A stretch of DNA of 33,690 nucleotides from a virus. The number at the start of each line of letters is the position of its first letter. Position 1 is the stretch's first letter. Of this stretch, positions 4,798 to 32,689 are shown piece by piece. Below the pieces are notes generated by a model, which searched no databases, was not told the DNA's origin, and worked only from the letters and a program-made list of their open reading frames with translations. The translations under genes and the position numbers were made by a program. The DNA lies in the IMG/VR virus record IMGVR_UViG_3300010883_000200, positions 1 through 33,690 of that record, one strand, 5' to 3'.

Positions 4798-5865
4798 TTA
4801 AGCAGCGTTATAGTGTGCTGTTACAAGAGCTTCTGGACGAAGAATCTTGCGACCATATAGATGCATACCACGAACAATGTCAGCAAAGCTGTCTGGGTCA
4901 CGGTAGTTCTCTACTTTGTTGATCTGCTCAGCAGAAGCGCAAGCTTCGTCTTGACCAGCAACAATCACGCCAAAGTTTACGTCCTGTGCCAAAGCCCCAG
5001 AAGTTCCGGCGCCTGAGCCCTTCTTAGGAAGATTATTGGACACATAAACACGGAAGCCGTGCAGGTTGTTCAATACCAAGCCGTTCATAAGGCCTGTACC
5101 ACCGAAGTCGGCATTCATTACGCGAGAATCCTCGTCTTTGAGCATCTCAATAAACACCGGGTCAAGAACGACATAACGCCCACGAGAGTCCACATTAGCT
5201 GTGTCCATCTGACGTGCCATACGTGCAAGAACAGTCAAAGGAGAAACAGTCGCTGTAGACAACGCTGTTGCGCCTGGAAGACGTGGAGCAAGAGGAATGG
5301 AATCGCCATTAGCATAAGCTGTTGAAGCGGAGTCAGCTGTACCCAACGAACCGAAGTCAGTTGCGTCCAAGTGGTTTGCAGTAAACAATTCACCAGTTAA
5401 AGAACCAGCTGTTGCGTGCTGTGCATCACCAGAAGTGGAAGTGATGAAAGCGCCTGCAGTAGTGTGACCTGACAGGTAAGACAAGCAGTCTTGGTCCATT
5501 GCGTCAGCCATCTTATAGGCTGCACGATTTGCTGCCAAAGATGAGAAGTCTACGTTTGCGAATTGATCTTCAATGTCATCCATTTTGAAAGCAAAGTAGT
5601 TGGCTTTGTCGATGGTCAAAGAGAAGTCAGTGTCGTCAAGTTTCTCTACTGAGATACCTGTGTGACGTTGCAGAGCGTTAACAGTTACGTCTGGCTCTTT
5701 CTGGATGCGAACTGTGTCGCCTTGGTTAGCAATCTCACCAAAGTAAGAGTTGTTTGTGATTGCGTTAGTGATGGCAGATTTGCGTAGAGCAATCTGTGCC
5801 TGCTTGGAATAAATAACTGGGGACCAGCTACCGTTAAAGCCGCCTGATGCGGAAGTAATAGCCAT
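4798..5865 (-). CDS. Major capsid protein
   Basis: A 355-residue protein starting MAITSASGGFNGSWSPVIYS, with an HK97/P22-coat-like composition: N-terminal helix (SKQAQIALRKSAITNAITN), a beta strand region IANQGDTVRIQKEPDV (about 47-62), FKMDDIEDQFAN (about 93-104), and a late LNNLHGFRVYVSNNLP strand (about 261-276). It lies downstream of the scaffold gene and upstream of the adaptor. A strong ribosome site (GAAAGGATTTTCTC) precedes the ATG. The 238-bp gap upstream carries a hairpin, and a hairpin follows the gene, consistent with high independent expression of the shell protein. Confidence 0.88.
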   Translation of the reverse strand: MAITSASGGFNGSWSPVIYSKQAQIALRKSAITNAITNNSYFGEIANQGDTVRIQKEPDVTVNALQRHTGISVEKLDDTDFSLTIDKANYFAFKMDDIEDQFANVDFSSLAANRAAYKMADAMDQDCLSYLSGHTTAGAFITSTSGDAQHATAGSLTGELFTANHLDATDFGSLGTADSASTAYANGDSIPLAPRLPGATALSTATVSPLTVLARMARQMDTANVDSRGRYVVLDPVFIEMLKDEDSRVMNADFGGTGLMNGLVLNNLHGFRVYVSNNLPKKGSGAGTSGALAQDVNFGVIVAGQDEACASAEQINKVENYRDPDSFADIVRGMHLYGRKILRPEALVTAHYNAA

Positions 5866-6103: not shown

Positions 6104-7042
6104 CTATTTCTTTGACATATCGTAAATAAACTTGCCTTTACGTTGAGCGTCTATAATCTCGTCTTGACGCTTCTCGTATTCTTTAATAGACATCTTCGCT
6201 ACCTGTGATTCTCTGAGGTAGGTTGAAGAGTCATTTGCATCTACTACGGTGCGTTTACCTTTAACTGAGGTAGCTGCATCCTTATCAGCAGTAGAGGTAA
6301 CTTTCTTTGTCTTGATGCCGTTATCTGACTTATACAGATCTAGTACACGTGCAATAGACTTAACATCATCTACATTCTCATATAGTGCATCCTGTACCAC
6401 TTTAGGCTGTGTCTCTGCCCACTTGTGGAAGGCGTCATCAGAGCGTATCTGTGCAAAGTCGGGGTGCATAGACATAAGCTCTGCTTCGGACTTCTCTCTA
6501 CGAGCCTGTGTGCGTAACTTCTCAATCTCTTTAAGGCGACTATCTAGCTCAGAGGAGCGTTCATTAGCTTTTTTATCAGCAATAGCTTCTACCATACCAG
6601 CAACATCTGGGTACTTCTTAGCCCAAGCTTCTACTTCATCTTCTGACTTAGGTAGTACAAGCTCATTCTTTGATGCTGCATCAAGTTGAGATGTGAGTTT
6701 ATCCAGCTGTGCTTGGAACTCTTTCTCTTTCTCTTGAGTGTGCCGCCGTAGATCACCATAACGCTTCTTGAAGTTCTTTTCCTCTGCACTTAGATCTTCA
6801 TCTTGTGCTTCGGCTTTTGGTTCTTCTTCTTGTTCGGAACTACTCTCTGCCTGAACACTGGGTTCGACAGGCTCCGTGCTATCGGGTTCCTCTTGGGTGG
6901 TTTCTTCAGCTTCTTCATCTGCTGCCTCTGTAACTACCCCCGCTTCTTTGAGTAGGGCTTTTAGTTCCTCTTCATCCCGCATAACACGGTTTGTATTTCG
7001 TTGGTGTGACGCAGAATCAGTCTGCAGTTGGGCTTCCGACAT
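6104..7042 (-). CDS. Capsid scaffolding protein
   Basis: A 312-residue, highly charged protein directly upstream of the capsid gene. Residues about 40-90 are a Glu/Asp/Ser/Pro-rich disordered stretch. Residues about 90-190 are heptad-like and coiled (KKRYGDLRRHTQEKEKEF and following). The C-terminus is basic and Ser-rich, ending DMSKK, as expected for a scaffold tail that binds coat protein. It has a good ribosome site (AAGGAGAAAAAC). No protease gene is adjacent, so scaffold may leave the procapsid intact, as in P22. Function is inferred from composition and position. Confidence 0.8.
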   Translation of the reverse strand: MSEAQLQTDSASHQRNTNRVMRDEEELKALLKEAGVVTEAADEEAEETTQEEPDSTEPVEPSVQAESSSEQEEEPKAEAQDEDLSAEEKNFKKRYGDLRRHTQEKEKEFQAQLDKLTSQLDAASKNELVLPKSEDEVEAWAKKYPDVAGMVEAIADKKANERSSELDSRLKEIEKLRTQARREKSEAELMSMHPDFAQIRSDDAFHKWAETQPKVVQDALYENVDDVKSIARVLDLYKSDNGIKTKKVTSTADKDAATSVKGKRTVVDANDSSTYLRESQVAKMSIKEYEKRQDEIIDAQRKGKFIYDMSKK

Positions 7043-7063
7043 GTTTTTCTCCTTATGTTGGGG

Positions 7064-7077
7064 CCAGCCGTAGCTGG
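7064..7077 (-). promoter_or_regulatory. UACG-tetraloop hairpin in the scaffold leader
   Basis: On the minus strand CCAGC-TACG-GCTGG forms a 5-bp stem closed by C(UACG)G, a UNCG-type tetraloop of exceptional stability in RNA. It lies about 22 bases before the scaffold ATG, just upstream of the ribosome site. It may mark a processed or protected 5' end, or tune translation. Confidence 0.45.
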
Positions 7078-7130
7078 GTAGCCTTATAGTTATATGGGTA
7101 GTCTTGTAGTGTTACTTGTAGACCCTCTTA

Positions 7131-9527
7131 TTATTTTCCACTGTTACCAAGATACTGTTTTTTCTTTTTAGTAGAGGGTGACCAATTACCACCGCCAGCT
7201 GGGCCAGAGGCTCCAACACCAGACCCTGTAGCGGAAGGGGTTCTTGCTACGGGTCTTGCATCAGCTATAGGTGTTGATGAGCTATATCCTAGATTTGGGC
7301 TACTGCCGCCAGTGTAGCTACCGCCATTGTTGTTATCGTTATTATCTACTATAGGTGCAACAGTAGTTGCTACTGCAGCAGCTGGAGGTGTATTGTTATC
7401 ATTGCTGGTGCTATTCATAATACCTGGCTCAAGAACCGCACCTGTCACGTCATCTACAAGTTGACCATTCCTGTAAGACTTGCCATCTTTTGCAGTGAAC
7501 ATATTAGCTATGCTCTCTGATAGGCTGTTACCTTTATATGTATCCCCGTCAAACAAGTTAGCCAAGTTCTTTATTTCTGGCTTGTCATTACCGTTTTCAT
7601 CTTTACCTTGCATTTGGTATTGAATCTGCGTTAGTTTAATCCTTTGCGTTTCACCAATGTCAGGGTTATCAAGCTGAGATTGTATACCTTTAAGCATAGC
7701 GTTACTTTGTAACTTCATCATACCTTTTATACCTAGTCCCATCAAGGGGCCACCAACCAATGTAGCTAAACCAGTAAATACTGTACTACCCGTACCCGTC
7801 ATTTGTCCCATTACTTCTTGGAACTTTTCAGGAGTACCTTCATCTGGGTTTGCCCAATCAATAGATTCAGGGGGTTCTTGTGAATCATCTCCACCAGTAT
7901 AAGTACCTCTATCTTCACTTAATTGAGAGGAAGAGGGTGCAGTAGTACCTGTAGAAGCAGAAGTAGCAACCTGTTCAGCTACTTGTTCTGCAACAGCTGC
8001 TTCAGGAGTGTAACCTGCAGGAATAGGGGAAATAGGTGAACCATTCATAAACTGTATGTATTGCTTTTGACCATCAGGGCCAATGTAGGTACGAATCTCA
8101 AAGCCACCACCAATGCTGCTATAAGGATTAAAACCACCTGCAGCATAACCAGAAATGTAACCACCCTTATTCATCATAGGCTGTTCTGGCTCTCCATCGT
8201 CAACCATCTGTAGTTCTGATACATCAAAGGGTAACTCATCGCCACCCATTTCCATACCACTAACAGGCTCACCACCTACACGACCATTAGCTTCCATCTG
8301 AGCAAAGCCTTGTTTAGCTTCAGCACGAATGTCCTCAAAGAACTTAACACCAAAGAAGCGTACTACATCAGCAGGTACAACATACTCACCTTCACTCAGT
8401 TGAGCAGGAATATCATCTCGTACTTCTTCTGGCATAGAACCTACTGGCACTTCATTGCCTGACACTGGGTCTACATCTTCTGCTAAGCCACCTAGTGCGA
8501 AGGCCTGTCTTGTTTGATCATCCATTACTATTCCGCCTTCGTTGAAGTTTTGTGTAGGTAGCTTATGTACTGTAACACCAGCTGCACCCAGCTTATTGTT
8601 GGTTACTGCAAAGCCATCTCCCAGTGTGTCTGTTATGTAGGATCTAAGCTCAGGCTGTGTAAAGCCTTTTTGATAAGTATCTGAAGAGGTTATAATAGAC
8701 ATAGGTTCTGGGCCAGCTTTACCCTTAGCAGCCATTACATCCCTACCACGTGTAGTTATAACGGCCCTACCATTAGGCTCAAGTATACGTCCAATATCCT
8801 GTACAATAGTGTCTCTAACATCTCTTGGTACTACGTTTAGTACGTTTAGATTAGTAACTTTACTATACGAGTTTGATGGTATGTCAGAAGGGTTGCTGAA
8901 GTCAGGCGTAAAGTCAGCCTTAGGAAAAGGTTCATACGTATCAAAGCCAAGCTCTTTCTTTGACAGGCCTAAGCCTGCACCAAAGTCTAGCGTTTTACCT
9001 TCTCCTGATAGCTCAGTTAGTAGTGTATCCGCTTTCTTGTAAGTAGGAAGGGTTCCTGATATTTGCGTTTTAGCGGAGTTTTCAGCAGGAGGTAGCTCTA
9101 TTTCTTTAGGCTTTAACTTAACATTGCCAAGACCAGAACCCATAGCATTAGGGTCAACCTCTACACGCTTGGCTACATCAAATACTTCCTTAGCACCCTT
9201 CCTAATAGCCTTAGCAGCTATATCACCTACACCGGGAATAAGCCCTATAAGTGCAGCACCGCCCAGCGCACCCGCTAAGTAGTAGTTAGGTTCATCTTTC
9301 TGTAGTTCATCATAGACTTCTCTAGCTGCCATAGCGTCACCAACAATAGGTGTCATCTCAGCAACAAAGGTAGCAGCATCCTTAAGGGTAAAGTCTACGC
9401 TGTTTCTCTGGTCAGTAAAAACTTTAAGCTCAGCCTGTGCTGCCTTCTGTTCTTCTTTAGACTGTAGGGAGCCGCTGTTCATAGAAGAACGTAGAGCTTC
9501 TTCCATTTGGTTATCTATATCAGCCAT
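7131..9527 (-). CDS. Large virion-associated protein with SAM-methyltransferase domain
   Basis: A 798-residue protein encoded between portal and scaffold. Order of parts: (1) residues about 50-120, a Gly/Ala-rich, membrane-prone segment (EMTPIVGDAMAAREVYDEL, then LIPGVGDIAAKAI). (2) Residues about 160-325, a Rossmann methyltransferase-like domain with SAM motif TLDFGAGLG (179-187), an acidic YEPFP second strand, NLNVLNVVP (227-235) and ILEPNGRAVITTRGRD. (3) Residues about 330-420, the MPEEVRDDIPAQLSEGEYVV module shared by many marine phage virion proteins. (4) A long disordered Gly/Ser/Thr/Asn-rich tail ending with basic KKKKQYLG. This fits a packaged, possibly injected, polyvalent-type protein. 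Substrate unknown. It overlaps the preceding 62-residue gene by 8 bases. Confidence 0.7.
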   Translation of the reverse strand: MADIDNQMEEALRSSMNSGSLQSKEEQKAAQAELKVFTDQRNSVDFTLKDAATFVAEMTPIVGDAMAAREVYDELQKDEPNYYLAGALGGAALIGLIPGVGDIAAKAIRKGAKEVFDVAKRVEVDPNAMGSGLGNVKLKPKEIELPPAENSAKTQISGTLPTYKKADTLLTELSGEGKTLDFGAGLGLSKKELGFDTYEPFPKADFTPDFSNPSDIPSNSYSKVTNLNVLNVVPRDVRDTIVQDIGRILEPNGRAVITTRGRDVMAAKGKAGPEPMSIITSSDTYQKGFTQPELRSYITDTLGDGFAVTNNKLGAAGVTVHKLPTQNFNEGGIVMDDQTRQAFALGGLAEDVDPVSGNEVPVGSMPEEVRDDIPAQLSEGEYVVPADVVRFFGVKFFEDIRAEAKQGFAQMEANGRVGGEPVSGMEMGGDELPFDVSELQMVDDGEPEQPMMNKGGYISGYAAGGFNPYSSIGGGFEIRTYIGPDGQKQYIQFMNGSPISPIPAGYTPEAAVAEQVAEQVATSASTGTTAPSSSQLSEDRGTYTGGDDSQEPPESIDWANPDEGTPEKFQEVMGQMTGTGSTVFTGLATLVGGPLMGLGIKGMMKLQSNAMLKGIQSQLDNPDIGETQRIKLTQIQYQMQGKDENGNDKPEIKNLANLFDGDTYKGNSLSESIANMFTAKDGKSYRNGQLVDDVTGAVLEPGIMNSTSNDNNTPPAAAVATTVAPIVDNNDNNNGGSYTGGSSPNLGYSSSTPIADARPVARTPSATGSGVGASGPAGGGNWSPSTKKKKQYLGNSGK

Positions 9528-9708
9528 TCACTTTGTCCCTCAAGTACTTCAAGTTACGGTATGCTGAGATCTTACCTTGAGCGCGATACACTTCTACAGG
9601 ATCAGATATGTTCTCAATACTCTTGTGTTGCTGTGAGATGCACTCATCTAACTCTTGAGTAAATGCATCCCATAGTTCTTTATCGTTTACTAGCTTCTTA
9701 AGCGACAT
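9520..9708 (-). CDS. Small conserved phage protein between portal and virion protein
   Basis: A 62-residue, charged, probably helical protein (MSLKKLVNDKELWDAFTQEL...). The ATG at 9708 overlaps the portal gene's last codons; a GTG two codons earlier (9714) is possible but less likely. It overlaps the following 798-residue gene by 8 bases. This tight coupling within the packaging operon suggests a head-assembly helper or small structural protein. No recognisable motif. Confidence 0.7.
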   Translation of the reverse strand: MSLKKLVNDKELWDAFTQELDECISQQHKSIENISDPVEVYRAQGKISAYRNLKYLRDKVNG

Positions 9709-11830
9709 TACCACTGAACCCTTGTTCGCCCGGAGTTGGTGCTGTACCTATGCCCATCTGAGCACCGCCGCTTCCTGTAGTGTCCTGTACACCTGCTGGG
9801 CCTTGTCCTTGTGGCGCTGGGCCACCTTGGGGCATTGGAACGCCTTCAGGGCCTGTAGGGGCCGGAGGTGGCGTCTGGAAGCCTTTGAGGATCTCAGCTT
9901 GGATAGCAGCATCCTGCATAGAGTTAGTAACCTTATCGGGATCAAGATCCATAGACTTAGCAATCTCACGAATGATGTAGTCCATCTTAGCAAAGGGAGC
10001 TAATACTGGGTTCTGTGCTACTTGCAGGAACTGCATTAATCGTTGTGAGCGTACTTCATTAGCCATAAGGCTCTCTGTACCGGATGCGCGAACTTCTAAG
10101 TCACCACGAATAGACTCATCAAAGTCAAACTGCATGTTAAATGCAAAGAATGCCTTACCCATTGGTCGTATAAGATAGTCATCAACGTTCTTAACTACTG
10201 CACGGATACTACCATTAGCAGCAGACATAAGCATACTAATACCAGAAGCAGTACGTCCAACACCACTGACTCCCGTTTGACCATGAGCAAAACTAGGGAA
10301 ACCAGTAGACTCATCAGCAAGTACTCGTGCTTTATCAAAGAGTTGCATGTTTTCTTGGGCTACGTTGGGGAACTTGGTGCCAAAGATTGCTTGACCCGGG
10401 GCACCCCCTTGACGCCTAAACACTTTTCCCGGGTACACACTTAAGTCCTGTCCAGGAACAAGGTTAGTCTCATCTACTTCAATAATGAGGTTACCAGATA
10501 GAGCAGCATTGTCAATAGCCATACGCATAAAGCCATTCATCAAGGTCTGCGTGTCATCCATGTTCTCAGCAATGCCGATACCAAAGAAGCTGTAAGGGTT
10601 ATGCTCATAAGGTACTGCATAGTATGGGATACGTGCTGGTTTAAATGGATTGAGTACAAAACGTAATACTTCTCCATTACATGTCCAGATGTTACAGTTA
10701 AGCTCATCTAAGTCTTTATACTCACGAGGTATCTTAACACCATGCTCTTCAAGAATGTCTACATCTACAAAACCCCAGAACTCCAACACTTCCCAGCGCT
10801 CTGACTCAGGAGTAGCTTCATCATCTTCCATAGCCATTTCCCAGTGCTTCTGCACATAGTCAGGGCCTTTGGAGATAGCAGTGTCCATAGCATCTTTCAT
10901 GAAGTATGGACGGTTTTTAAGGCCACGAAGTTGTGTGCGTGACATCTTATGGCGTTCAATAATGTACTCTGCGTCATCCATAGAAGCAGCTTCTGGATCA
11001 GGGTAGAAGTTCCAGCATGATACGTGATTTGTTTGTGGTACTGTTTTAACGATAGGTGAATACTCACCATCTTCATCCCAGTTAGGATACTCTTTATCTA
11101 CAGCAAAGGGGCCTTTCATGACACCTGTTCCAAGTAGAGCCATCTCAAAGGCCATAGAACGTAGATGCACAGATGCACCGGATTCGTCTAGCTGGTCATG
11201 GATCTTCTTTTCCATCTTTTTAGCTGCAATCAATGCAGGATGAAATGTAACTGTGCTTGGTGTAGTACCGTCACCCTCAATTAGCTTATCACTAACAGGG
11301 CCTAGTTTACCTGACAGAGGGCCTAAACGTGCAGATAGGTCATTAAGTGTCTCACCCGGCAATAGCTTAGTGTCAGGGCCTATAAGATAAGGTCTAGGAG
11401 CAGGTTGTTGTGTCACAGCTTTAAGTGCATCACCAGCAGCGGCAGCATTAGGGTCAATGTTAATGTGTACTGACTCTGCTACTCCATCTGGAAGTACAGA
11501 AGGGTCAACCGTCATAGGGAACTTGTTGTTACCGAATAGTACATCTGTAATAGAACCATAAGCAGCAAGTGTCTTGGTTTTAGTTACCTTAACAAACACA
11601 CGAGACTTCTCAGTGTCAGTAAACTTTACGCTAGAGCTATAGAGGCCACGATAGTTGCGGTATGCTTTAAGCCAACGCTCTTCATCTGAACGCCGTGAGT
11701 CTTCAGAACGTGTGAACCGTGATTGAACAAAAGAAACAACACTAGAGGCTTCTTCAAAGATACTATCCTTGGTATCCTCTGCTGCTGTTACATCGTCTGT
11801 CTCAAACGAAAGGTCGTTAATCTCTGCCAT
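9698..11830 (-). CDS. Portal protein
   Basis: A 710-residue protein immediately after the large terminase (12-bp gap) with portal-like features. The N-terminal half contains YRNYRGLYSSS (about 57-67) and FVKVTKTKTLAAYGSITDVLFG (about 78-99). A middle region reads MALLGTGVMKGPF (about 225-237) and then CWNFYPDPEAASMDDAEYI, the D-rich portal strand. SFFGIGIAENMDDTQTLMNGF (about 415-435) is the long helix that lines the channel. The C-terminus is Pro/Gly/Gln-rich. Length fits P22/HMO-2011-type portals. It is expected to form the dodecameric ring at one vertex through which DNA is packaged. Confidence 0.87.
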   Translation of the reverse strand: MAEINDLSFETDDVTAAEDTKDSIFEEASSVVSFVQSRFTRSEDSRRSDEERWLKAYRNYRGLYSSSVKFTDTEKSRVFVKVTKTKTLAAYGSITDVLFGNNKFPMTVDPSVLPDGVAESVHINIDPNAAAAGDALKAVTQQPAPRPYLIGPDTKLLPGETLNDLSARLGPLSGKLGPVSDKLIEGDGTTPSTVTFHPALIAAKKMEKKIHDQLDESGASVHLRSMAFEMALLGTGVMKGPFAVDKEYPNWDEDGEYSPIVKTVPQTNHVSCWNFYPDPEAASMDDAEYIIERHKMSRTQLRGLKNRPYFMKDAMDTAISKGPDYVQKHWEMAMEDDEATPESERWEVLEFWGFVDVDILEEHGVKIPREYKDLDELNCNIWTCNGEVLRFVLNPFKPARIPYYAVPYEHNPYSFFGIGIAENMDDTQTLMNGFMRMAIDNAALSGNLIIEVDETNLVPGQDLSVYPGKVFRRQGGAPGQAIFGTKFPNVAQENMQLFDKARVLADESTGFPSFAHGQTGVSGVGRTASGISMLMSAANGSIRAVVKNVDDYLIRPMGKAFFAFNMQFDFDESIRGDLEVRASGTESLMANEVRSQRLMQFLQVAQNPVLAPFAKMDYIIREIAKSMDLDPDKVTNSMQDAAIQAEILKGFQTPPPAPTGPEGVPMPQGGPAPQGQGPAGVQDTTGSGGAQMGIGTAPTPGEQGFSGNVA

Positions 11831-25617: not shown

Positions 25618-25744
25618 GGGACTACCCAATGAGGACGATCCGCACGATGACTGCACTCATTGGGCAGGTCACTTATCAAAAAAACAGAAAGGAGAAATAA
25701 AAGATGATACCAAAGAGCACAGACAGGCTAGAGAAGGTCTTTAA
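25607..25744 (+). CDS. 45-residue acidic peptide overlapping the integrase start
   Basis: MPFEGLPNEDDPHDDCTHWA then GHLSKKQKGEIKDDTKEH. It overlaps the membrane peptide by 11 bp and the integrase gene by 41 bp in another frame. It may be a coupling peptide or chance. It holds a 9-bp inverted repeat. Confidence 0.3.
   Translation: MPFEGLPNEDDPHDDCTHWAGHLSKKQKGEIKDDTKEHRQAREGL
25625..25664 (+). repeat. 9-bp inverted repeat upstream of the integrase
   Basis: CCCAATGAG (25625-25633) and CTCATTGGG (25656-25664), 22 bases apart, 40 bp before the integrase ATG. Possible RNA hairpin controlling integrase translation or an integrase/regulator binding site. Confidence 0.45.
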
Positions 25745-26615
25745 CTTCTACTTGCAGAGTGATGACTTCGCTAGGCTCAGCGGTAGCACTCAAACATCCT
25801 ACTACAATTACCTACAGAAAGTAGGAGACACTAAGGTTAGCGGTAAGATGCTAAAAAACTTCAGGGTAGGGGACATCAGAGCAAGCCACCTTAACACCGC
25901 CTATGAAGGGTGGGTCAAGATAGGGGTACGCACAGCCAACTACATGAAGGCAGCACTTAGCGTTGCTTGGAAGTATTCCCTGCGTAAGGACGTTATGACC
26001 CATGACCCTGTATCAATCATAAAGACACAAGCATCCACCACTAGGCGGGTGAAGTGGGAGAAGGAGCACATCAAGCAATTCCTGACTGTTGGTTACGGTG
26101 ATATCAAATGGAGAAGTATTACCCTGATTGTGCATATGGCTTATGATTGGGGCCAGCGTATAGGCGACATGAGAGTTCTTAAATGGGATAAGCTAGACCT
26201 GACACAGTGCCGCATGGACTTAACACAGTCTAAGCGAGGCGCAGAGGTGCACTTACCTATCAGTCCAGGATTGTGTAAAATGTTGCAACAGCAGAAGTCC
26301 GACTTTGGCTTCCAAGATTATGTAGCACCACGAGTTAAGCCACAGGCAGGGGCCTACACGCCCTACAATAAGGAGGAGATATCTCGTCTTATCAATGCGT
26401 TACTAGAAGAAGCTAAGCTACCATCAAAGCTAACAGCTATGGATTTACGCAGGACAGCCGTGACTGAGATGATGGAGGCGGGGGTTGACCTTGCTGGTAT
26501 CATGCAGGTAACAGGGCATAAGAACGTAGCCAGCATTAAGCCGTACATGGTCAATACATTCAGTGGGGCCAGTAAGGCTCTAGCAGCCAGAGGAAATGAT
26601 GATGAACATTCGTAA
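25704..26615 (+). CDS. int: Tyrosine recombinase / phage integrase
   Basis: A 303-residue protein with an N-terminal SAM-like core-binding domain (about 10-105) and a catalytic domain. Active-site set: R152 (WGQRIGD), K177 (QSKRG), D247 and R250 (MDLRRTA, where HxxR is usual), H272 (TGHKN) and Y281 (IKPYM). The first His of the family is replaced by Asp, a substitution seen in some members. Strong AAAGGAG ribosome site. It joins phage and host attachment sites for lysogeny. It lies within the replication operon and overlaps the primase start. No attP site was recognisable nearby. Confidence 0.9.
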   Translation: MIPKSTDRLEKVFNFYLQSDDFARLSGSTQTSYYNYLQKVGDTKVSGKMLKNFRVGDIRASHLNTAYEGWVKIGVRTANYMKAALSVAWKYSLRKDVMTHDPVSIIKTQASTTRRVKWEKEHIKQFLTVGYGDIKWRSITLIVHMAYDWGQRIGDMRVLKWDKLDLTQCRMDLTQSKRGAEVHLPISPGLCKMLQQQKSDFGFQDYVAPRVKPQAGAYTPYNKEEISRLINALLEEAKLPSKLTAMDLRRTAVTEMMEAGVDLAGIMQVTGHKNVASIKPYMVNTFSGASKALAARGNDDEHS

Positions 26616-30640: not shown

Positions 30641-32689
30641 ATGAGACTTGTACTAGACGTTGAGAATACAACCAACAAGCGCAGGGAGAAACTGCACTTA
30701 GATCCCTATGAGGAGGGTAACTTTCTTGTACAGGTAGGTATGCAGAATGCAGATAACGATAAGGAGACACACTTAGTAACACTTGATCATGTCGAGAAGA
30801 AAGACACCAGTGGCGCTGGGCGTAAGCTAGTCCAGCAAGTGCTTGATGTTACTACTCTTTTGATTATGCACAATGCACAGCACGATCTCATGTGGTTGTG
30901 GGAGTGTGGCTTCAAGTATGATGGTGACATTTATGACACAATGCTTGCAGAGTACATTCTACTACGAGGCCAGAAGGAGCCAATCTCGTTGGGTGCCTGT
31001 GCTGAACGTAGGGAGCTAACCTCTCAGAAGGATGACACTCTTAAGCGTTACTTTAAGGAAGGATACAACACTAATGAGATACCTCTCAGTGAGCTTTGCT
31101 TTTATCTTAGGGCTGATCTCGACACAACTCGTGAGTTGTTCCACTCAATCGAAGCAGACTACGGTGAAAGTGAATCCGCCTCTCTCATTACAGTTAGAGA
31201 CGTTACCTTTAGAGCCTGTCAAACCCTTACTAGAATGTACATGTCTGGAATCAGGGTGGATAGGACAACCCTTGATGCAGTACGAGTAGAGTATGAGCGT
31301 GAGAAGGCAGACATAGAAGACAGGCTGCAACATAAGGTGCGTGAGATCATGGGTGATACACCTATCAATCTTAACTCACCAGAGCAGATGTCTCAGGTTG
31401 TGTTCTCTCGTAAGGTCAACAACAAAAAGGAATGGGTAGATCTGTTTGAATATGTACGTGACAAGAAAGAGTTTAAGCAGGCAGTTGATGCAAATAGTGT
31501 CATCCTCAAGCGCACTAAGGCATTCACCTGCCCTACATGCGAGGGTGTTGGTAAGACATTCAAGATCAAAAAGGATGGCACTAAGTTTGCTAGGCCTAAT
31601 AAGTGTATCGACTGCGAGGCAAGAGGCTATCAGTTAAAACCACTAAACCACATAGCTGGCTTGGGCTTTGGTGCTCCATCTAAGAAGTGGGTTAGTGCCA
31701 ATGGCTTCAGCACAGGGAAAGACAATCTTGATGTACTTATTGGAACAGCTAAAACAAATAGGATGGATGCTGCTGTTGAGTTTCTTACTGACCTTAAGCG
31801 CCTTTCTGCTGTTAGTAGCTATTTATCTAGTTTCGTTGAAGGTATCGAAACATATACTAAGTCAGACGGATTTCTGCACGTTGGACTTACCCAGCATATT
31901 ACTGCCACCGGACGTTTCAGTGGAAGAAATCCCAATATGCAGAACATGCCAAGGGGCGGAACATTCCCAGTAAAGAGGGTGTTTGTATCTCGTTGGGAGG
32001 GTGGCTACATCTGTGAGGCCGACTTTGCTCAGCTTGAGTTTCGTGCCGCAGCATTCCTTGCTCAAGATGAGCTTGCTATGGAAGAGATCCGCACAGGGTT
32101 TGACGTACACAGCTACACTGCAAAGGTTATCACTGATGCAGGTCAGCCAACTACCAGACAAGGGGCAAAAGAACATACCTTCGCACCCCTGTTCGGCGCT
32201 ACAGGCTATGGCAGAAGCAAGGCTGAAGAGGCCTACTACATTCACTTCACTGAGAAGTATAAGGGTGTAGCTGCGTGGCATAAGAACTTGGCTAACGAGG
32301 CAATCAGGTTTAACAAGATTACTAACGTATCAGGGCGACAGTATGCTTTCCCTGACGTAAAGCGCAACGCAAGAGGAGGAGTATCACACTTCACCATGAT
32401 CAAGAACTACCCAGTACAGGGGTTTGCGACAGGTGATGTGGTTCCTGCTGTGTTGATAGAAATGGAGAGAAGGTTGGATCATTTACAGTCATGCTTAGTG
32501 AACACAGTTCATGACTCAGTGGTTTTAGATATCCACCCAGAGGAGAAGGAGAAAGTGCTACAGATTATTAATGGAATGAACGAAGGTCTTAACACCTTAA
32601 TAGAAAAGGCTTACGGAGTAAAAATGAACGTACCACTACTATTAGAGTCAAAAATCGGTCCTAACTGGCTTGACGTAAAAGATGTGTAG
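30641..32689 (+). CDS. polA: Family A DNA polymerase with DnaJ-type zinc insert
   Basis: 682 residues. 3'-5' exonuclease motifs: DVENTT (6-11), MHNAQHDL (76-83), YLRADLDTT (155-163). Insert with CPTCEGVG (297-304) and CIDCEARGY (322-330), two CxxCxxxG units as in the DnaJ central domain; only half of the DnaJ Cys set. Polymerase motifs: A EADFAQLEFR (459-468), B RQGAKEHTFAPLFG (506-519) and C TVHDSVV (622-628; HDS where HDE is usual). The DnaJ insert is described for SAR116 phage HMO-2011 and relatives. The enzyme copies the phage genome with proofreading. Confidence 0.93.
   Translation: MRLVLDVENTTNKRREKLHLDPYEEGNFLVQVGMQNADNDKETHLVTLDHVEKKDTSGAGRKLVQQVLDVTTLLIMHNAQHDLMWLWECGFKYDGDIYDTMLAEYILLRGQKEPISLGACAERRELTSQKDDTLKRYFKEGYNTNEIPLSELCFYLRADLDTTRELFHSIEADYGESESASLITVRDVTFRACQTLTRMYMSGIRVDRTTLDAVRVEYEREKADIEDRLQHKVREIMGDTPINLNSPEQMSQVVFSRKVNNKKEWVDLFEYVRDKKEFKQAVDANSVILKRTKAFTCPTCEGVGKTFKIKKDGTKFARPNKCIDCEARGYQLKPLNHIAGLGFGAPSKKWVSANGFSTGKDNLDVLIGTAKTNRMDAAVEFLTDLKRLSAVSSYLSSFVEGIETYTKSDGFLHVGLTQHITATGRFSGRNPNMQNMPRGGTFPVKRVFVSRWEGGYICEADFAQLEFRAAAFLAQDELAMEEIRTGFDVHSYTAKVITDAGQPTTRQGAKEHTFAPLFGATGYGRSKAEEAYYIHFTEKYKGVAAWHKNLANEAIRFNKITNVSGRQYAFPDVKRNARGGVSHFTMIKNYPVQGFATGDVVPAVLIEMERRLDHLQSCLVNTVHDSVVLDIHPEEKEKVLQIINGMNEGLNTLIEKAYGVKMNVPLLLESKIGPNWLDVKDV

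What the first reader, a model, noticed from the sequence alone, without database searches (positions are those of the whole stretch)
7131..9527. Virion-associated protein with an internal methyltransferase domain
Seen: a Rossmann-type SAM motif (TLDFGAGLG) with following strand and NLNVLNVVP motif, inserted between a Gly/Ala-rich membrane-prone segment and the module common to marine phage virion proteins. It lies between portal and scaffold genes, so it is probably packaged. Inference: a polyvalent-type protein delivered with the DNA, possibly methylating host or phage molecules early in infection.
Basis: partly seen in the sequence, partly recalled or inferred. Interest (0 to 1): 0.75.

Follow-up and report, generated by a model that had tools for sequence, protein, structure and literature searches.

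The report
Methyltransferase cassette in phage head-gene protein
A marine phage carries, in a gene squeezed between its portal and head-assembly genes, a genuine methyltransferase domain of a little-described viral family that is swapped in and out of such proteins and is probably, though not provably from sequence, loaded into the virus particle and delivered to the host at infection.

Summary
Window 7131-9527 encodes, on the minus strand, a 798-aa protein of an HMO-2011-type marine podovirus, directly downstream of the portal gene and upstream of the scaffold-like and capsid genes. Residues 145-322 are a class I SAM-dependent methyltransferase (MTase): AlphaFold pLDDT 93.9, Z 16.6 to METTL6:SAH, conserved SAM motifs, strong purifying selection. 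The domain belongs to an almost exclusively viral family: 340 IMG/VR stretches against 2 in 84,980 bacterial genomes. No Pfam, NCBIfam or PHROG model covers it specifically; the nearest named family is the DNA-phosphorothioation-associated putative MTase (TIGR04096). It behaves as an exchangeable cassette: after the portal in 33/33 loci with a recognisable portal, yet in only 2 of 14 isolate phages sharing the slot, with lower synonymous divergence than neighbouring genes and alignment breaks at its edge. Relatives fuse it to ADP-ribosyltransferase, lysozyme or cell-wall hydrolase domains, and in mycobacteriophage Myrna to a head-maturation-protease homologue. A packaged, injected polyvalent-type effector is the best reading, but presence in virions, activity and substrate are untested. 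It is not a DarB-type DNA adenine MTase. The 'module common to marine phage virion proteins' was found only in HMO-2011-type phages.

The parts
7131..9527 (-). Gene of the 798-aa cassette-bearing protein (slot protein)
   Evidence: ORF, ATG start, no internal stops; homologues of 377-1395 aa in the same slot of 14 HMO-2011-type records
9096..9527 (-). N-terminal module, res 1-144, with a Gly/Ala-rich hydrophobic stretch (res 82-105, window 9213-9284)
   Evidence: Shared with CRP-212, CRP-207 and CRP-9, which carry no MTase (phmmer 7e-13 to 6e-17); best 19-residue hydropathy 1.63
8562..9095 (-). Class I SAM-dependent methyltransferase domain, res 145-322
   Evidence: AlphaFold pLDDT 93.9; PDB matches Z up to 16.6; family alignment of 27
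8967..8993 (-). SAM motif I TLDFGAGLG, res 179-187
   Evidence: D181, G185, G187 invariant in 27 relatives
8826..8852 (-). Motif IV region NLNVLNVVP, res 226-234; not a [DNS]PP[YFW] DNA-MTase motif
   Evidence: N231 invariant, most of the rest nearly so
8658..8678 (-). Family signature TYQKGFT, res 284-290, after strand 5
   Evidence: Q286, K287, G288 invariant; TFQK/TYQK at the same place in most aligned TIGR04096-type MTases
8238..8531 (-). HMO-2011-type core module (DPVSGNEVP...LSEGEYVVPADVV...), res 333-430
   Evidence: Found in the slot of all 14 HMO-2011-type records (in CRP-738 on the adjacent gene gp39), 1e-17 to 1e-41
7134..8237 (-). Variable C-terminal region, res 431-798
   Evidence: 24-35% identity to most relatives (62% in the closest), dN/dS 0.36-0.62
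9520..9714 (-). Small ORF (64 aa) between portal and slot gene; a similar-sized gene is annotated there in most HMO-2011-type isolates
   Evidence: annotated tables
9698..11830 (-). Portal protein gene
   Evidence: PF23899 SU10_portal 94.3 bits, cut-off 30; 84% identical to CRP-207 portal
6104..7042 (-). Scaffold-like gene (by position)
   Evidence: phrog_13678, unknown function
4798..5865 (-). Major capsid protein gene
   Evidence: PF25209 33 bits, cut-off 27; phrog_267 major head protein

Best explanation
The gene encodes a modular head-associated protein of an HMO-2011-type phage. It is made of a conserved core module, a shared N-terminal module and an exchangeable class I MTase cassette of an almost exclusively viral family. 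Most likely the protein is taken into the procapsid, next to portal and scaffold, and is ejected with the genome. The MTase then uses host SAM to methylate a host molecule (RNA or protein more likely than a DNA base) in the first minutes of infection, as a counter-defence or take-over step. Shown: domain, fold, conservation, location, cassette behaviour, fusions in relatives. Inferred: packaging, injection, catalysis, target and benefit.
For: Confident MTase fold with SAM motifs. Purifying selection on the MTase (dN/dS 0.04-0.14) against 0.24-0.62 in the N- and C-terminal regions. Directly after the portal in 33/33 loci with a recognisable portal and before the scaffold in 31/31. The same order portal-MTase protein-scaffold-capsid in a distantly related group, L055. 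Near-exclusively viral family: 340 stretches in IMG/VR, 2 in 84,980 bacterial genomes. Fusions above Pfam cut-offs with ART-PolyVal (L061), Phage_lysozyme (HTVC103P), Cell Wall Hydrolase (CRP-3) and PcfJ, the company described for polyvalent proteins (PMC5512222). In Myrna gp97 it follows a region homologous to annotated head maturation proteases, immediately before the minor capsid gene gp98 and the major head gene gp99. Cassette exchange: against L010, dS is 0.40 (N-module) and 0.52 (MTase) but 2.2 (core), 1.35 (portal), 1.75 (capsid), 2.4 (TerL); alignments of L012, L014 and L029 break at window 9092-9094, where the MTase begins.
Against: No virion proteomics for any member was found. The window protein has one recognised enzymatic domain, so 'polyvalent' rests on relatives. 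Some relatives sit elsewhere: HTVC103P gp52 lies about 28 kb from its portal, and L054/L064/L075 have no recognised head gene beside them. Stand-alone versions exist (L049, L057, L067, MJing1), so packaging is not a property of the domain as such. The window domain alone stays under Pfam cut-offs (18.1 against 27 bits).
Confidence: 0.6

Rival explanations
1. The protein is a non-packaged assembly factor or late-expressed enzyme: the MTase acts in the producing cell, for example on a capsid or tail protein or on host translation late in infection, and its place among head genes only sets its timing.
For: Stand-alone copies in head-gene clusters (MJing1 near the portal-capsid region; L067-L070, 208 aa, just upstream of a portal). 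CRP-13 gp54 and CRP-345 gp61 are free, unrelated MTases in the same slot.
Against: Fusion in the same chain to lysozyme, cell-wall hydrolase and ART domains, which are entry-type activities, and to a head-maturation-protease homologue in Myrna; the HMO-2011 core module is always kept with the slot.
Confidence: 0.25
2. The MTase protects incoming phage DNA from restriction, as proposed for DarB of phage P1.
For: DarB is a virion-packaged MTase polyvalent protein (PMC5512222). The nearest named family of the present domain is the DNA-phosphorothioation-associated putative MTase.
Against: Motif IV is NLNVLNVVP, not [DNS]PP[YFW]; there is no helicase, no target-recognition domain and no DNA C5-MTase cysteine motif in the conserved blocks. 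The best structural matches are RNA, lipid and small-molecule MTases.
Confidence: 0.1
3. The MTase domain is a degenerate leftover with a structural role only.
For: The window domain scores below Pfam cut-offs.
Against: SAM motifs are invariant across relatives down to 48% identity and dN/dS is lowest in this domain in most comparisons.
Confidence: 0.04

Closest known systems
Polyvalent proteins of phages and conjugative elements (Iyer et al. 2017, PMC5512222)
   Same: Large modular phage proteins near late virion genes; relatives carrying the same MTase domain also carry ART-PolyVal, lysozyme or hydrolase domains
   Different: The MTase described in the passages read is an EcoKI/TaqI-like DNA adenine MTase with a helicase; the present one is a type-11-like class I MTase without a DNA-MTase motif
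DNA phosphorothioation-associated putative methyltransferase (NCBIfam TIGR04096, dnd_rel_methyl)
   Same: Best NCBIfam match of the family (25 of 27 members, best 7.8e-08); profile comparison 99.4% over 169 columns with shared VLNV and T[FY]QK..xxEL motifs
   Different: 15.7 bits in the window against a cut-off of 150; lacks the rest of the ~480-position family; sits in phage head clusters; generic MTases also align, more weakly on the whole but with overlapping scores
DarB of phage P1
   Same: MTase carried in the phage head and acting on entry (from PMC5512222)
   Different: Different MTase class, no helicase, no known antirestriction role
METTL6 and other class I RNA or small-molecule MTases
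   Same: Fold, Z 13-17
   Different: 6-19% identity; many unrelated substrates lie close in Z, so no substrate can be read from this
Mycobacteriophage Myrna gp97
   Same: 47.6% identical MTase domain, encoded between gp96 and the capsid genes
   Different: N-terminus homologous to head maturation proteases; no HMO-2011 core module

Membership tests
Class I SAM-dependent methyltransferases | Seven-strand Rossmann MTase fold | tested here: met
   pLDDT 93.9 model, VIA Z 16.6 to METTL6:SAH, 2.5 A over 173 residues
Class I SAM-dependent methyltransferases | Motif I GxGxG and acidic residue after strand 2 | tested here: met
   D181, G185, G187 and E199 invariant in 27 relatives
Class I SAM-dependent methyltransferases | Score above a curated family cut-off | tested here: inconclusive
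   Window domain 18.1 bits against 27; relative L007 41.8 against 27 and 34.4 against 21.2
Class I SAM-dependent methyltransferases | Binds SAM and transfers methyl | not testable with these tools
   needs purified protein
Polyvalent proteins | Several unrelated enzymatic domains in one chain | tested here: inconclusive
   Only the MTase is recognised in the window protein; relatives have two or more
Polyvalent proteins | Encoded among late virion genes | tested here: met
   portal - slot gene - scaffold - capsid, 33/33 and 31/31 loci
Polyvalent proteins | Present in the virion and delivered on entry | not testable with these tools
   no virion proteomics found
DarB-type DNA adenine MTase | NPP(Y/F) motif and fused SF2 helicase | tested here: not met
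   Motif IV is NLNVLNVVP; no helicase hit
TIGR04096 dnd_rel_methyl | Score above the 150-bit cut-off over the ~480-position model | tested here: not met
   15.7 bits, positions 126-151 only
TIGR04096 dnd_rel_methyl | Homologous MTase domain with VLNV(I) and T(F/Y)QK motifs | tested here: met
   hhalign 99.4%, 169 columns against 12 members and relatives

The most novel reading that the evidence does not exclude
A viral-only branch of the MTases that accompany DNA phosphorothioation (Dnd) systems has been taken over by phages, packaged in the head and injected to counter a nucleic-acid-based host defence, as one of several interchangeable warheads carried on a common head-targeting core.
Probability: 0.12. 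Interest if true: 0.8.

Novelty: new variant of a known kind. Interest (0 to 1): 0.55.

Why it matters
HMO-2011-type phages are described as a dominant, widely distributed marine group (PMC9038755), and that paper does not mention a methyltransferase in its main text. The slot looks like a cargo site for entry effectors. The MTase cassette gives a compact, well-conserved and expressible handle for testing which proteins such phages inject and what they modify, and it links phage cargo to an uncharacterised MTase that accompanies a bacterial defence system.

Tried and rejected
Pfam and PHROGs on the whole window protein gave no MTase hit; the domain had to be scanned alone and as a family. A phmmer search of PDB with the domain was weak, and the profile search was contaminated by leucine-rich-repeat designs matching the NLNVLN stretch; I discount these because the fold search is unambiguous. 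A full-length model failed (mean pLDDT 35.6 with a gappy 13-sequence alignment) and says nothing about the N-terminal, core and C-terminal parts. Myrna mass spectrometry was sought as direct evidence of packaging: the paper examined capsid proteins and does not mention gp97. DNA base methylation as the default function was rejected on motif IV. The ParB-like insert of L014 is only sub-threshold (18.1 against 26.3 bits) and is not claimed.

Full report
What is there. The gene at 7131-9527 is on the minus strand and encodes 798 aa. The left half of the window is a late-gene block read on the minus strand: terminase large subunit, portal, a 64-aa ORF, this gene, a scaffold-like gene, major capsid and adaptor. 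The portal is 84% identical to that of Roseobacter phage CRP-207. The right half has an integrase, ThyX, a DnaB-like helicase and a family A DNA polymerase with a weak DnaJ central-domain match. Together with the portal neighbours this places the window in the HMO-2011-type group.

The methyltransferase domain. Residues 145-322 were aligned with 26 relatives from other viral contigs; D181, G185, G187, E199, N231, R260, Q286, K287 and G288 are among the invariant positions. The model is confident and its best PDB matches are class I SAM-dependent MTases, first METTL6 with SAH. Twenty-four of 27 members hit Methyltransf_23, the window member below cut-off, and the distant member L007 passes the cut-offs. 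The Z values of many enzymes with different substrates are close, so the substrate cannot be read from the fold.

Relatives. Two scans of IMG/VR gave 78 and 340 confirmed stretches, while one scan of 84,980 bacterial and archaeal genomes gave 2, both on short contigs of metagenome-assembled genomes. These scans use peptide patterns and miss distant relatives. The closest named family is TIGR04096, the putative MTase associated with DNA phosphorothioation. Twelve such sequences, from two genomes and from plasmids, gave a profile match of 99.4% over 169 columns with shared VLNV and T[FY]QK motifs. Single generic MTases scored 2-44 against 34-68 for single members of this group, so the relation is the best available but not exclusive.

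Modularity. The slot between portal and scaffold is occupied by proteins of 377 to 1395 aa in 14 HMO-2011-type records. All keep the core module (in CRP-738 on the separate gene gp39); only CRP-3 and CRP-738 carry the MTase. Other slot proteins carry a cell-wall hydrolase (CRP-2) or DUF7178 (CRP-212). Against L010 the N-module and MTase have dS 0.40 and 0.52, but core, portal, capsid and TerL have 2.2, 1.35, 1.75 and 2.4. DNA alignments of L012, L014 and L029 all break at window 9092-9094, where the MTase begins; L014, whose portal is 97% identical, has about 570 extra bases exactly there. This is the behaviour of an exchangeable cassette. Several of the larger dS values are near saturation, so their ratios are rough.

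Packaging. The argument is by position and company: 33/33 loci with a recognisable portal have the gene directly after it and 31/31 with a scaffold have it before. Many of these loci are closely related contigs, so they are not independent. L055, from a distantly related group, has the same order with its own portal, scaffold and capsid. In Myrna gp97 the domain follows a region homologous to head maturation proteases and the gene precedes the minor capsid gene gp98 and the major head gene. Lysozyme, cell-wall hydrolase and ADP-ribosyltransferase partners fit an entry role. No virion proteomics was found, and some relatives lie away from head genes.

Mechanism and verdict. The best explanation is a packaged, injected, polyvalent-type protein whose MTase methylates a host target early; I put this at 0.6. 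A late-acting, non-packaged enzyme is the main rival (0.25). DNA-base methylation of the DarB kind is unlikely because motif IV is not of the DNA-MTase type and there is no helicase. As far as the libraries and papers searched here show, the MTase family has no model of its own and is not described in virion proteins; I could not read the supplement of the polyvalent-protein paper, so an earlier mention cannot be excluded.

Noticed in passing
L181:5746-6441 (CRP-13 gp54) and L180:7204-7908 (CRP-345 gp61): Two isolate phages without the cassette have a separate gene for an unrelated class I MTase (Pfam Methyltransf_25, over cut-off) directly after the slot gene: methylation turns up twice at one locus from different families.
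   Followed up: partly
L076:5410-6240 and 6360-8198: The MTase-bearing gene is split into two ORFs within the domain; frameshift, sequencing error or real fission was not resolved.
   Followed up: no
L054, L064, L071, L072: A different phage group fuses the same MTase to a C-terminal DUF6321 domain, well over the Pfam cut-off, away from recognised head genes in L054 and L064.
   Followed up: no
L172:1736-3091 and L174:1706-3049: On two Streptomyces plasmids a TIGR04096-like MTase domain lies at the C-terminus of a ~450-aa protein, between a LysR regulator and a nucleoside triphosphate pyrophosphohydrolase gene.
   Followed up: no
window 25704-26615: A tyrosine-integrase gene (PF00589, 72 bits) near ThyX suggests that this phage may be able to lysogenise.
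   Followed up: no
window 30641-32689: Family A DNA polymerase with a weak DnaJ central-domain match inside (17.5 bits, below cut-off).
   Followed up: no
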